This document shows, one piece after another, positions 6,778 through 11,051 of a stretch of DNA of 54,162 nucleotides. The notes under the pieces are model-generated. The model saw only the letters and a list, made by a program, of their open reading frames with translations, ran no database searches and was not told the DNA's origin. The DNA lies in contig JAFWEW010000008.1 in assembly GCA_017512725.1 (NCBI GenBank), positions 1-54,162 of the forward strand, written 5' to 3'. Made by a program: the position numbers and the translations under genes. This DNA is from Solobacterium sp. Lineage in GTDB: Bacteria; Bacillota_I; Bacilli_A; Erysipelotrichales; Erysipelotrichaceae. How positions within the stretch are numbered: the first letter of the stretch is position 1; each line of letters opens with the position of its first letter.

Positions 6778-6831
6778 AGAAAAAACAGCAGTCCGTATCC
6801 CGGATTATTCCGGAAAAGAGACTGCTGTTTT
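6778..6831 (-). terminator. Terminator of the AAA+ / XpaC-like operon
   Basis: On the minus strand the inverted repeat AACAGCAGTC ... GACTGCTGTT encloses an AT-rich loop and ends in TTTTTT, shortly after the AAA+ gene. Confidence 0.85.
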
Positions 6832-6846
6832 CATAAATGGTTAGGG

Positions 6847-9033
6847 TTATTCTGCTGCGTTCTTCAGCATTTCGTTGAATTCCCGCAGTTCCTTGAATTC
6901 ATCGGCCGGCTGTACTTTTACCGTCAGATCAAAATCTTCCAGTTTCAGCTCATCGATCTTTGCGCTGCTGTCATTGACGACACGGCCCGACTGTTTCAGG
7001 ATCGCATCCTCAACCACATTCCGCGCCAGACGTCCGTTTCCGGCTTCTGCCGCATTGATCGACTGCACTTTGTCAAAGAATTCCTCAAGCGGTCCAAGCG
7101 CGCTTTCTTCAATGACATATCCCTTGCCCTTAGCCTGGATTACTGCAATCTTGCGGAGTTCTTCACCGGTATAATCCGGGAAGTGAATCGTATTCGGGAA
7201 CCGGGATTTCAGACCGCTGTTGGATTCCAGGAATACTTCCATTTCTTTGCTGTAACCGGCGAGGATCACGATCAGATTGTCGCGGTTGTCTTCCATCGCT
7301 TTGACAATCGTATCAATACACTCAAGACCGAAGGAATCATCCTTGCCGCGGTAAAGAGAATACGCCTCATCAATAAACAGAACTCCGCCGATTGCCGACT
7401 TGATGACCGACATCGTAAGCGGTGCGGTCTGACCGACATACTGCGCAACCAGATCGGCTCTGGTGACTTCCACAAGCTGACCCTGCGTAAGTGCGCCAAT
7501 CGCTTTCATATACCGGGAAAGCAGTCTTGCGATCGTTGTCTTGCCGGTTCCCGGATTGCCCGTAAAGATCATATGCTTGGAGATTTCACTGGTCTTCATG
7601 CCCTGTGCCTTACGGATCTCCTGCATGCGGATATGGTTCTGCAGAGCCTTGATATATGCCTTGATCTCTTCCAGTCCGACGATCTCATCCAGTTCTTTAT
7701 TGACTGCTTCAATTTCTTCCGCACTGGTCTTTGAACGGGAGAGTCCTACGGACCGTTCACCAAACACAGCGGAAGGAGCTCCATCCTTTACCTCCAGGGA
7801 TACCGGTATTCCGGCAGCGAGATTTTCAATCAGAGCTGCCTGGCTGAGCGAAATGTAGAAGTCATCGAACAATCCGTTCAGGGCATCCGCACCATTGGTT
7901 TTGTCATAGTTGGCTACGACCCAGTGTTTGAGGTCATCCTTCACATTCACGGCAATCTTGAGATTGCGGTTTGCCTTTTCTTCCAGTGCCTTGGAGAGAC
8001 GCTCCGTATACTCCAGTGCATCCTCTTCCGTAAACTGCGTCAGTGTGACGATATCGAGCACATGGTACAGAAAGTTGGCACCAAAGGCATTCTGCACCGC
8101 CTTGGTTCCGTTTGACGTAATGAATACCAGATACTTGCCGGCCGCGGAAAGGGAATCAACCGCATCCTTGACCAGTCCGGTCTGGTTCTCAACCAGAATT
8201 CCCTTGTTCAGAACATAACGCTTGGACAGCGTAACTTTTCCTTCACAGACCAGGGAGTCTACCATTCTCAGGAATCCCGGGAATCCCACTTCAAAATTCT
8301 CGAAGCAGATGATTTCTCCATGCCCGGAAAGATCCTTATAGAGGTCCTGCAGGAAGATTCCTTCCTGTGCTCCGCTCTGATAGAGGCTCATATCTACGGT
8401 GTATACATCGTCACTGCCAATCACCCGGTGCTCAAACAGAGACTTTGCCATCTTGGTGACACACGCATGACGGCCGCTGCCTCTCGGACCGGTGACAAGA
8501 ATGACATTTTTCGGCTTGCCCTCTTCCACACCCATGACATAGGGTCTGCGGAATGCGACACACATCTGTTCCAGCGCCTCATCCTGTCCGACGATCTCTT
8601 CGTCCATTTCGGTCAGGATCTCGCCGAACACTTTTGCGGAATCAAAGTCCCGGAGCACAGGCGGCTTATTCGCCTCCTGTTTGGTAAGTCCATAGTCCTG
8701 TTCAATTTCTTTCTGTACGCGCTCCATATCATCCTGATTGAAGCCGTTGTCCTTTGAGAGTTCTTCCAGATCCTTCTGCTGGCCGACAAGAAGCTTGCGA
8801 AGTTCATCAAATGAACGGTCCGCATTCTTCAGAAGATCACTGGTTGCCTGTGACGCTGTGTTGATCATGTTCGACATCGTCGAAACATCTTTGGCTGTTT
8901 TATCAATCGAATCTTCTCCGGAACCGCTGTCCGTTGTCAGAACAATCTCTCCATCTTTCATATAGGTCTTGGAACGGTCTTTGTTCAGAACCTCCCGCAT
9001 CAGACGTTCTTTTTCTTTACTGCGGTCTTTCAT
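6847..9033 (-). CDS. Tandem AAA+ ATPase, CbxX/CfxQ (SpoVK-like) with an inactive first module
   Basis: This 728-residue protein has a charged helical N-terminus (1-125) and two AAA+ modules. The first (about 130-400) resembles a Clp-type module, but its Walker A is GPRGSGRH (Lys and Thr replaced) and its Walker B reads ICFENFE instead of a DE pair, so it should not hydrolyse ATP. The second (about 450-700) is a CbxX/CfxQ module with intact GNPGTGKTT (about 493), FIDEAYSL (about 551), sensor-1 region VILAGYSKEM and arginine finger LKSRFP. CbxX proteins remodel protein complexes. It starts 3 nt after the XpaC-like membrane protein gene, with AGGGG as ribosome site, so the two probably act together. 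Its substrate is unknown. Confidence 0.85.
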   Translation of the reverse strand: MKDRSKEKERLMREVLNKDRSKTYMKDGEIVLTTDSGSGEDSIDKTAKDVSTMSNMINTASQATSDLLKNADRSFDELRKLLVGQQKDLEELSKDNGFNQDDMERVQKEIEQDYGLTKQEANKPPVLRDFDSAKVFGEILTEMDEEIVGQDEALEQMCVAFRRPYVMGVEEGKPKNVILVTGPRGSGRHACVTKMAKSLFEHRVIGSDDVYTVDMSLYQSGAQEGIFLQDLYKDLSGHGEIICFENFEVGFPGFLRMVDSLVCEGKVTLSKRYVLNKGILVENQTGLVKDAVDSLSAAGKYLVFITSNGTKAVQNAFGANFLYHVLDIVTLTQFTEEDALEYTERLSKALEEKANRNLKIAVNVKDDLKHWVVANYDKTNGADALNGLFDDFYISLSQAALIENLAAGIPVSLEVKDGAPSAVFGERSVGLSRSKTSAEEIEAVNKELDEIVGLEEIKAYIKALQNHIRMQEIRKAQGMKTSEISKHMIFTGNPGTGKTTIARLLSRYMKAIGALTQGQLVEVTRADLVAQYVGQTAPLTMSVIKSAIGGVLFIDEAYSLYRGKDDSFGLECIDTIVKAMEDNRDNLIVILAGYSKEMEVFLESNSGLKSRFPNTIHFPDYTGEELRKIAVIQAKGKGYVIEESALGPLEEFFDKVQSINAAEAGNGRLARNVVEDAILKQSGRVVNDSSAKIDELKLEDFDLTVKVQPADEFKELREFNEMLKNAAE

Positions 9034-9036
9034 ACA

Positions 9037-10101
9037 TTACCCCTGTAATCCGCTTTCCTCGGATGCCATACTGCTTTCCTGGCGCTTCAGAGCTTCCAGA
9101 ATATCATCATCTGCGGTCATGCCGTCTTTGCGAAGCATCGCTTCCAGCGTAGACATATCCGCAGACAGGTTGATGGAGTCGCTTTCCGACATTGCCGGAA
9201 TCAGACGGTCCTTCATCGCACTGTTGATATGACTGATGGTATCTTTGAGTCCCTGAACATTGCGTTCGTAGTTCGCATCGGTCTGTACATGCTGCATCTT
9301 GGTATACTGCTGCAGAATTCCGATGAGATATGGCAGGTAATTGTTGTAGAGTTTATTGAGTTTTCCCTTCTGGGCCGGGAATGCACGCTCCAGATCATCA
9401 AGCTGTTTGAGAAGTGCACTGGTTTCATAAAGTCCGTTGGAGATTTCCTCATCCGGAATTCCTTCATTCAGTGCATTGATCGCTTCACGGAAAGAGCTGG
9501 CATCCGAAGGTTTCGGAGCTTCCGGTGCCTTTTCTGCTTTTTCCTGCTTTTTTGCCTTTGCGGACGCAGAAGCCGTACCGGTCTTCGGTACATATTCCAC
9601 ATCTACGACTTCCGGCTGTTTCACCGCGACATCATTCTGTTCCATGGTGAGAAGCGTATCAAACATCTGATCGTAGATCTGCGGATAATCTCTCCGGAAA
9701 TCCGCGACCGTACGGAAATAATGCCCGTCGCAGTCTACTTCCAGTGCATCCAGACTTGAGAACCGGTCGTTTTTCAGTGTCAGAACGATGTTATGGCTGC
9801 CGCTGGAAAGCGTAATAGCCTGCTCACCGCTGCGGAAGCGTTTCAACAGATAGGCATTGACTCTTGCCTTCTTGTCTGCAGAGTGGTGATTATCCGACAT
9901 CCCATAACGGTTTACCGTCGTACGGCGTCTGCTTGCCGTATTGCTGGTATACGTATTGGTTTTGGATGACTCAATCGCCTTAAACATGATTAAAGCGACT
10001 GACCCTAAGATCAGCAGCAGCGGCAGCAGCGTGTTTGTGAATCCAAACACGAAGAATAATATAAACAGGATCCAGAATCCCCCATTTGATGAACGAAACA
10101 T
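9037..10101 (-). CDS. XpaC-like membrane protein
   Basis: Of 354 residues, the first 45 form two close hydrophobic stretches, followed by a Ser/Thr/Arg-rich linker, a small domain (about 85-160), an Ala/Lys/Pro-rich linker and a helical C-terminal domain (about 195-340). The last contains YNNYLPYLIGILQQYTKM, similar to the core of the XpaC family (often next to TelA-type toxic-anion-resistance proteins). Assignment to XpaC is tentative. The ribosome site is AAGAGG, and a TATAAT lies at 10123-10128 on the minus strand. It is the first gene of a two-gene operon with the tandem AAA+ protein. Confidence 0.65.
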   Translation of the reverse strand: MFRSSNGGFWILFILFFVFGFTNTLLPLLLILGSVALIMFKAIESSKTNTYTSNTASRRRTTVNRYGMSDNHHSADKKARVNAYLLKRFRSGEQAITLSSGSHNIVLTLKNDRFSSLDALEVDCDGHYFRTVADFRRDYPQIYDQMFDTLLTMEQNDVAVKQPEVVDVEYVPKTGTASASAKAKKQEKAEKAPEAPKPSDASSFREAINALNEGIPDEEISNGLYETSALLKQLDDLERAFPAQKGKLNKLYNNYLPYLIGILQQYTKMQHVQTDANYERNVQGLKDTISHINSAMKDRLIPAMSESDSINLSADMSTLEAMLRKDGMTADDDILEALKRQESSMASEESGLQG

Positions 10102-10122
10102 GCTTTTTTCCTCTTAACGTGC

Positions 10123-10128
10123 ATTATA
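10123..10128 (-). promoter_or_regulatory. -10 box of the XpaC-like/AAA+ operon
   Basis: A perfect TATAAT on the minus strand lies 21 bp upstream of the start codon. No good -35 hexamer exists at 16-18 bp; that position is occupied by the terminator of the upstream gene. Confidence 0.5.
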
Positions 10129-10134
10129 CCATGT

Positions 10135-10161
10135 AAAAAGGGGCTGAATCACAACCCCTTT
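10135..10161 (-). terminator. Terminator after the 269-residue unknown gene
   Basis: On the minus strand AAAGGGG-TTGTGATTCAG-CCCCTTTTT forms a short GC-rich stem with a T-run. Confidence 0.8.
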
Positions 10162-10182
10162 ATATATATTTTTCTAGAAGAT

Positions 10183-10992
10183 TCAGTTTCCTTCTTCTTC
10201 CGTTCCGACAACCCACATCTGCCGGTAACTCAGAATCGGAACTTCATCCGCATTCAGCCTTGCCTGATTGCGCTGTTTGTGAATATCCCCCTCATGGACT
10301 GCCGAGCGGATACTCTTGTTGACCATATACTGTACATACAGCAGTTTCTTGAGCAGGAACCACCGTACCACGTACCAGCGGATCAGATCCCTGCGGTCGG
10401 TGAGATCTTTTAATGAAGCAGCAGCTTCTTCCTTCAGTGTCTCACTTGCCTTGTAGGCCTGCGTTTTGAGTTCTTCATAATCTTTGTAATGGTTCCGGTC
10501 CAGCTGCCGCTGAATCATTCCCGCTTTGCCGTCCTTCAGCCGGTTCCAGCTGCTGACGATTTCTTCGCTGCTGTCGGTGCAGATTTCAAGAATCTCATTG
10601 CGGGCGTCATAGAACTCGCCTCCGGCTTCACTCATGCAGTAGTAATAACCGCGGGCATACAGATAACCGTTTTCTTCATACGGAAGTACCAGCATTGCCC
10701 GGTCTACATTCTCATCGGTTGCGTAGAGAATGTATGGATAAACGATCGGGTTTCCCGTAAGCTTGCTGATGTCACGGTAATGAATGATCCGGTTGCTGAT
10801 CGCATCCAGCTTCACGGAATCCGCAAGATCACAGATGATATATGTCTCCGGTTCTGATTCTGCGATTTCCGCAAACGCTTTCTGAAGCGTCTCATCCGGC
10901 AGTTCTTTCTGTTCCAGAAATGAACTTAACAATCCGTTATAACTGCATCCCGATTGTTCATCTTTCTGTCTGAGAATTTCAAATACTGCCAT
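10183..10992 (-). CDS. Protein of unknown function, 269 residues
   Basis: I do not recognise a family. The protein appears soluble, with an acidic N-terminal half rich in Tyr/Asp/Glu and a basic helical C-terminal part (about 165-250) with a KLLYVQYMV stretch. It has an excellent promoter (TTGAAC-17-TATAAT) and a GGAGG ribosome site 6 nt upstream of the ATG, and its own terminator, so it should be well expressed. Its place directly upstream of the XpaC-like/AAA+ pair, on the same strand, suggests a functional link, but it is transcribed separately. Confidence 0.7.
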   Translation of the reverse strand: MAVFEILRQKDEQSGCSYNGLLSSFLEQKELPDETLQKAFAEIAESEPETYIICDLADSVKLDAISNRIIHYRDISKLTGNPIVYPYILYATDENVDRAMLVLPYEENGYLYARGYYYCMSEAGGEFYDARNEILEICTDSSEEIVSSWNRLKDGKAGMIQRQLDRNHYKDYEELKTQAYKASETLKEEAAASLKDLTDRRDLIRWYVVRWFLLKKLLYVQYMVNKSIRSAVHEGDIHKQRNQARLNADEVPILSYRQMWVVGTEEEGN

Positions 10993-11022: not shown

Positions 11023-11051
11023 ATTATAGGCATAAAGGATATTGAGTTCAA
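11023..11051 (-). promoter_or_regulatory. Sigma-A-type promoter of the 269-residue gene
   Basis: On the minus strand, TTGAAC (11051-11046), a 17-bp spacer and TATAAT (11028-11023), 31 bp upstream of the start codon. Confidence 0.85.

What the first reader, a model, noticed from the sequence alone, without database searches (positions are those of the whole stretch)
6847..10992. Dead/active tandem AAA+ protein coupled to an XpaC-like membrane protein
The first AAA+ module has lost both Walker motifs (GPRGSGRH and FENFE) while the second CbxX-type module is intact. The gene begins 3 nt after an XpaC-like membrane protein, and a strongly expressed unknown protein gene lies just upstream. This looks like a membrane-tethered remodelling machine in which the inactive module could be an adaptor. 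I know of no described function for this combination.
Basis: partly seen in the sequence, partly recalled or inferred. Interest (0 to 1): 0.62.

Follow-up and report, generated by a model that had tools for sequence, protein, structure and literature searches.

The report
Half-dead AAA+ motor with XpaC–TelA
A gut bacterium of the Erysipelotrichaceae makes a two-part molecular motor whose first half has lost its ATP-burning residues and whose second half is intact; across related bacteria this motor travels with the membrane protein XpaC and the stress protein TelA, which ties a dedicated motor to a poorly understood toxin- and antibiotic-tolerance system.

Summary
The 728-aa protein (6847-9033, minus strand) has two AAA+ modules. 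The first has the ClpA/ClpB second-domain fold, but the catalytic K/T of Walker A and D/E of Walker B are replaced (GPRGSGRH, IICFENFE), as are the residues at the arginine-finger and sensor-2 positions. The second is an intact SpoVK/CbbX-type module. In 91 aligned relatives module 2 never loses its Walker residues, while module 1 keeps its own non-canonical signature (R/K then H), so it is maintained rather than decaying. The neighbour is an XpaC-family membrane protein, directly upstream of the AAA+ gene in all focal-genus loci where both are complete. Of 95 Erysipelotrichales genomes with the tandem AAA+, 93 have TelA; of 100 without it, 11 do. In sister genera the order is XpaC-L, a ~175-aa gene, AAA+, sometimes XpaC-S, then TelA. 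The third gene named (10183-10992) is a looser neighbour: separate transcription unit, and common in genomes lacking the AAA+. Best reading: a membrane-docked, narrow-client AAA+ chaperone for the XpaC–TelA envelope-stress system, with module 1 as a non-hydrolysing docking or regulatory ring. Partnership is well supported; TelA as client is inference.

The parts
6847..9033 (-). Tandem AAA+ protein, 728 aa
7759..8652 (-). Module 1 (aa 128-425): ClpA/ClpB second-domain (NBD2) fold with catalytic residues replaced
   Evidence: VIA-align Z 25.2 to ClpA 6uqe; phmmer to Hsp104/ClpB/ClpC NBD2, E 6e-6 for the module alone
8467..8490 (-). Degenerate Walker A of module 1, GPRGSGRH (aa 182-189): K->R188, T/S->H189
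   Evidence: R 75/91, K 15/91; H 84/91
8290..8313 (-). Degenerate Walker B of module 1, IICFENFE (aa 241-248): D->E245, E->N246
   Evidence: E 85/91; N 57/91, H 24/91
6907..7734 (-). Module 2 (aa 434-709): SpoVK/CbbX/EccA-clade AAA+, all catalytic motifs intact
7537..7560 (-). Walker A of module 2, GNPGTGKT (K498, T499 invariant in 91/91)
7360..7383 (-). Walker B of module 2, VLFIDEAY (D555, E556 invariant in 91/91)
9037..10101 (-). XpaC-long: N-terminal pair of hydrophobic segments, conserved middle region, linker, PF10112-type C-terminal helical region
   Evidence: directly upstream of the AAA+ in all focal-genus loci with both genes complete
9982..10080 (-). Two predicted TM segments of XpaC-long (about aa 8-20 and 24-40)
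   Evidence: sequence; hydropathy scan of orthologues
10123..10131 (-). Extended -10-like element TGGTATAAT before XpaC; TATAAT-type elements at the same place in most of the 18 species
10137..10161 (-). Terminator-like hairpin between the upstream gene and XpaC
   Evidence: -15.3 kcal/mol for the 53-nt stretch, z -2.5; hairpins at the same place in 18 of 18 species folded
6781..6832 (-). Strong terminator-like hairpin plus T tract after the AAA+ gene
   Evidence: -30.8 kcal/mol, z -6.9
10183..10992 (-). P0003: 269-aa protein of unknown function, frequent neighbour but separate transcription unit; probably not a core part
11023..11051 (-). Promoter-like site of P0003 (TTGAAC-17-TATAAT)
   Evidence: 10 of 12 matches; the number of such sites in the region is not above shuffles

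Best explanation
The protein is the dedicated AAA+ chaperone of an XpaC-TelA envelope-stress system. Module 2 (SpoVK/CbbX-type) assembles into a hexamer and hydrolyses ATP to remodel one client. Module 1, a ClpB-NBD2-like pseudo-ATPase, forms a non-hydrolysing second ring or collar that docks partners and sets the motor's register. XpaC-long, a two-TM membrane protein with a cytoplasmic helical domain, holds the motor at the membrane, and the likeliest client is TelA or the XpaC-TelA assembly. Shown by sequence and comparison: the two modules, the lost catalytic residues in module 1, their conserved substitutes, intact module 2, adjacency to XpaC, co-occurrence and operon linkage with TelA. 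Inferred: hexamer, membrane docking, TelA as client, role of module 1.
For: Structure and motifs. Clade markers of the SpoVK/CbbX/EccA group, whose characterised members are narrow-client chaperones, several linked to the cell envelope (PMC10659427): GY signature 91/91 and sensor-2 arginine 90/90. XpaC directly upstream of the AAA+ in focal-genus loci where both genes are complete. TelA in 93 of 95 genomes with the tandem AAA+ against 11 of 100 without; outside the focal genus 54 of 55 against 11 of 99; by genus 22 of 22 against 4 of 46 (stronger TelA hits only). AAA+ and TelA within 1 kb in 27 genomes. Operons such as AAA-XpaC-TelA in L060, with PF10112 E 2.6e-16 and PF05816 E 3e-123, and XpaC-L-X175-AAA-XpaC-S-TelA in L142/L147. 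In 12 of 12 genomes holding the most divergent members (mostly Lachnospiraceae and other Clostridia), XpaC and TelA are present although the AAA+ mostly lies elsewhere.
Against: No physical interaction or client is shown. TelA and XpaC occur widely without this AAA+ (TelA in 82 of 150 Lachnospiraceae-type genomes, tandem AAA+ in about 5), so they can work without it. In the window's own genome TelA lies on another contig. Fisher tests were not corrected for phylogeny. The AlphaFold model has pTM 0.46 and 26 sequences, so the arrangement of the two modules is unknown.
Confidence: 0.55

Rival explanations
1. The AAA+ serves another client, for example a cytosolic cell-wall enzyme as SpoVK serves MurG, and shares only regulation and the stress context with XpaC and TelA.
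For: SpoVK activates MurG and EccA1 has been linked to envelope lipid synthesis (PMC10659427). In the window's genome and in the Clostridia, TelA is not next to the AAA+.
Against: 22 of 22 genera with the tandem AAA+ also have TelA, linkage is within 1 kb in 27 genomes, and the AAA+ stays next to XpaC. No cell-wall gene recurred in the neighbourhoods inspected.
Confidence: 0.22
2. Module 1 is not dead but binds nucleotide without (or with very slow) hydrolysis and works as a switch that couples nucleotide state to partner binding. This can be true together with the best explanation.
For: P-loop glycines are kept (G182 89/91, G187 89/91), position 188 is R or K in 90 of 91, and an acidic residue (E 85, D 6) stays at the Walker-B position.
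Against: The T/S ligand is replaced by H (84/91), the catalytic E by N/H, the residue aligned with the arginine finger by H/K/other and sensor-2 R by D/E in most. The divergent member L060 has no recognisable P-loop.
Confidence: 0.35
3. It is an EccA-like part of a type VII secretion system or a SpoVK orthologue in sporulation.
For: Module 2 hits spore_V_K (298 bits) and T7SS_EccA (243 bits) best among named families.
Against: Both scores are far below the curated cut-offs (423 and 467). Module 1 and the partners differ from SpoVK and EccA, and no secretion or sporulation gene recurred next to it.
Confidence: 0.04

Closest known systems
SpoVK / CbbX / EccA clade of AAA+ chaperones
   Same: Module 2: CbbX fold (Z 24.9), GY signature in sensor 1, conserved N before the arginine-finger segment, sensor-2 arginine
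   Different: Scores below all three curated cut-offs; N-terminal partner is a whole degenerate AAA+ module rather than TPRs, a beta-prism or a short NTD; associated with XpaC and TelA
ClpA/ClpB/ClpC (Hsp100) second nucleotide-binding domain
   Same: Fold of module 1 (ClpA Z 25.2, 270 aligned residues); homologous sequence over the whole domain
   Different: Catalytic K, T, D, E and sensor-2 R replaced; placed N-terminal to a CbbX-type module, not C-terminal to a Clp D1 ring
XpaC-TelA (YaaN) operons, e.g. lmo1966-lmo1967 of Listeria and xpaC-yaaN of Bacillus subtilis
   Same: Same two families; linked to tolerance of nisin, other envelope-acting agents and tellurite (PMC12791056; xpaC-yaaN gene order from own knowledge)
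   Different: Those operons carry no tandem AAA+ (own knowledge). Here XpaC-long has an extra conserved region between the membrane segments and the PF10112-type C-terminus

Membership tests
SpoVK/CbbX/EccA clade (module 2) | Tyrosine in sensor-1 region as GY signature | tested here: met
   G593 and Y594 91/91; definition from PMC10659427
[quoted passage not shown]
   N605 90/90, but the residue 4 downstream is K609 in 84 of 90; R611 is invariant. The register of the first finger is uncertain
SpoVK/CbbX/EccA clade (module 2) | Sensor-2 arginine present | tested here: met
   R668 and R671 90/90
SpoVK (TIGR02881), EccA (TIGR03922), CbbX (TIGR02880) proper | Score above NCBI's curated cut-off | tested here: not met
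   298/423, 243/467, 231/459 bits
Active Clp/Hsp100 NBD2 (module 1) | Walker A GK[TS], Walker B DE, arginine finger, sensor-2 arginine | tested here: not met
   R188, H189, E245, N246, H324, D383
Clp/Hsp100 NBD2 fold (module 1) | AAA+ core plus small domain of the Clp second domain | tested here: met
   VIA-align Z 25.2, rmsd 2.4, 270 residues to 6uqe
XpaC (PF10112) | Score above Pfam gathering cut-off | tested here: not met
   Window protein 16.4 against 29.8 bits. 23 of 28 orthologues hit at E <= 0.01 and several sister-genus orthologues pass the cut-off, so it is called XpaC-like
XpaC (PF10112) | Two N-terminal TM segments followed by a helical cytoplasmic domain, in an operon with TelA | tested here: met
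   TM pair in the sequence; XpaC/TelA loci in L060, L142, L147 and others. In the window itself TelA is not adjacent
XpaC-TelA stress system | Tellurite or envelope-antimicrobial phenotype | not testable with these tools
   needs genetics

The most novel reading that the evidence does not exclude
An undescribed AAA+ family, fusing a maintained Clp-type pseudo-ATPase to a CbbX-type motor, is the dedicated engine that assembles or disassembles a TelA-XpaC structure at the membrane, comparable in logic to Vps4 with ESCRT-III; this would give TelA its first mechanism.
Probability: 0.3. Interest if true: 0.8.

Novelty: new variant of a known kind. Interest (0 to 1): 0.56.

Why it matters
TelA and XpaC are widespread in Gram-positive bacteria and affect tolerance of nisin and other envelope-acting agents, yet neither has a known mechanism. 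A dedicated motor that is almost never found without TelA in Erysipelotrichales gives a concrete handle: trap the motor's client and the role of TelA follows. The protein also looks like a natural case in which a dead AAA+ ring is kept under selection next to a live one of a different clade.

Tried and rejected
Three-gene operon including 10183-10992: rejected as a core unit. Anti-phage defence: PADLOC hits are generic AAA+ matches, and none for the two partners. T7SS EccA or SpoVK orthology: below cut-offs. Decay of module 1: rejected because it is kept at 0.68 mean column identity in 48 focal-group proteins, against 0.47 for the N-terminal tail and 0.86 for module 2 (a rough split by locus number), with its own fixed signature. 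Fold of P0003: confident model (pLDDT 92.6) but no PDB match at E <= 0.001; Pfam CotH hit below cut-off. TelA and XpaC-long have no clear homologue of known structure by sequence. Literature: no held paper joins XpaC or TelA with this AAA+ type; most subscription papers are not held, and figure 3A of PMC10659427, which shows operons of the clade, could not be seen, so prior notice is not excluded. No Rfam match in the window. Lachnospiraceae-type control: 5 of 5 AAA+ genomes have TelA against 82 of 150 overall, only weakly informative, and one of the 5 is a module-2-only match.
Full report
WHAT IS THERE. The minus strand carries, in order of transcription, a 269-aa protein (P0003, 10183-10992), a 354-aa XpaC-like protein (9037-10101) and a 728-aa tandem AAA+ protein (6847-9033), with 81 and 3 nt between them. 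Downstream come reading frames that look like rapZ, yvcK and whiA after a strong terminator-like hairpin. The window belongs to a rumen/gut Erysipelotrichaceae genome; named records carrying the closest relatives are 'Solobacterium sp.' MAGs, and Lactimicrobium massiliense carries another.

MODULE 1. AlphaFold2 on 26 orthologues gives a confident module (pLDDT mostly 82-91 over aa 131-430). VIA-align places it with the second domain of ClpA (Z 25.2, rmsd 2.4 over 270 residues) and the ClpB/ClpC/Hsp104 equivalents; phmmer agrees. Against Hsp104/ClpB the Walker A K/T are R188/H189, Walker B D/E are E245/N246, the residue aligned with the arginine finger is H324 and sensor-2 R is D383. Across 91 relatives from Erysipelotrichaceae, Lachnospiraceae and other Clostridia the glycines of the P-loop persist and the R/K-H pair is nearly fixed (R 75, K 15; H 84), while the catalytic-glutamate position is N or H in 81. 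This is maintenance of a non-canonical site, not random decay. L060 goes further and has no recognisable P-loop.

MODULE 2. It has the CbbX fold (Z 24.9, 39% identity) and intact, invariant catalytic residues. It carries the GY and sensor-2 markers of the SpoVK/CbbX/EccA clade but scores well under the curated cut-offs for SpoVK, EccA and CbbX, so it is a separate member of that clade. Characterised members are chaperones with one narrow client (PMC10659427).

XPAC. The window protein alone hits PF10112 only weakly (E 0.009), but 23 of 28 orthologues hit it (best 6.9e-6) and orthologues in sister genera pass the Pfam cut-off. It has two N-terminal hydrophobic segments, a conserved middle region, a variable linker and a conserved helical C-terminus. 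In focal-genus loci with both genes complete, it lies directly upstream of the AAA+, from about 80 nt overlap of predicted frames to 25 nt apart. In sister genera a ~175-aa gene (X175, 29 loci by profile) sits between them.

TELA. The missing partner is TelA (PF05816). In L060, from another family of the order, the genes run AAA+, XpaC (4-bp overlap), TelA. Of 195 order genomes at least 90% complete, 95 have the tandem AAA+ and 93 of these have TelA; of the other 100, 11 have TelA. The result does not rest on the focal genus: outside it, 54 of 55 against 11 of 99. At genus level, with the stronger TelA hits, it is 22 of 22 against 4 of 46. AAA+ and TelA are within 1 kb in 27 genomes and within 7 kb in 41 of 46 with both listed on one contig. 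In 12 of 12 genomes holding the most divergent members, mostly Lachnospiraceae and other Clostridia, XpaC and TelA are present, next to each other in most, although the AAA+ mostly lies elsewhere. In the window's own genome TelA is on contig 26. These tests are not corrected for shared ancestry, but the pattern spans several families and survives loss of linkage.

THE UPSTREAM GENE. P0003 precedes XpaC in most focal-genus species but is elsewhere in some; in G013 and G008 it sits directly upstream of TelA, so a loose link to the system is real. It also precedes XpaC-L in several other genera (coordinates). Yet 18 of 18 intergenic regions folded contain a hairpin after P0003, and most also a TATAAT-type element before XpaC, and 37 of 100 genomes without the AAA+ carry the gene. 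It is best treated as an associated but independent gene. Its model is confident (pLDDT 92.6) and has no significant match in the PDB.

HOW IT MOST LIKELY WORKS. Shown: domain content, residue losses, conservation, linkage. Inferred: module 2 forms the working hexamer; module 1 adds a non-hydrolysing ring or collar that holds partners; XpaC-long tethers the motor to the membrane; the client is TelA or an XpaC-TelA assembly. TelA looks helical from its sequence (not folded here), its body is highly conserved, and it has a variable N-terminal tail ending in a conserved I-x-LTL motif, which could be a handle for the motor (speculation). The physiological setting is probably envelope stress, since xpaC/telA pairs respond to, or are needed for tolerance of, nisin and related agents (PMC12791056, PMC7864038).

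VERDICT. A real, conserved and apparently undescribed arrangement: a new architectural variant within the SpoVK/CbbX/EccA clade, attached to the known but unexplained XpaC-TelA system. The partnership is strongly supported by comparison; mechanism and client are not shown.

Noticed in passing
window 10183-10992 and A3 relatives: P0003 family: well-folded (pLDDT 92.6) protein without a significant PDB match, in 106 of 195 Erysipelotrichales genomes, next to XpaC-AAA+ in many and next to TelA in two.
   Followed up: partly
L067 9315-9749 (G000 contig 5): A 144-aa stand-alone homologue of the C-terminal region of XpaC-long without TM segments, between a PNPase-like and a TrmB-like gene; weak hits of similar size in many genomes of the genus.
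   Followed up: no
focal genus, e.g. G018:C13:2431-3102: A second, shorter TelA paralogue (about 300-350 aa, matching only the first two thirds of PF05816) in many genomes.
   Followed up: no
L118, L120, L112 and others: X175, a ~175-aa protein encoded between XpaC-long and the AAA+ in sister genera, not found near the AAA+ in the focal genus; function unknown.
   Followed up: partly
G040:C40, G055:C22, G058:C122: Other proteins of about 1300-1500 aa with several CbbX-type modules in a row, a different expansion of the same clade.
   Followed up: no
TelA N-termini: TelA has a poorly conserved N-terminal tail ending in a conserved I-x-LTL-x-P motif, and focal-genus members have an extra C-terminal tail (INxERDVTKR-like).
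   Followed up: no
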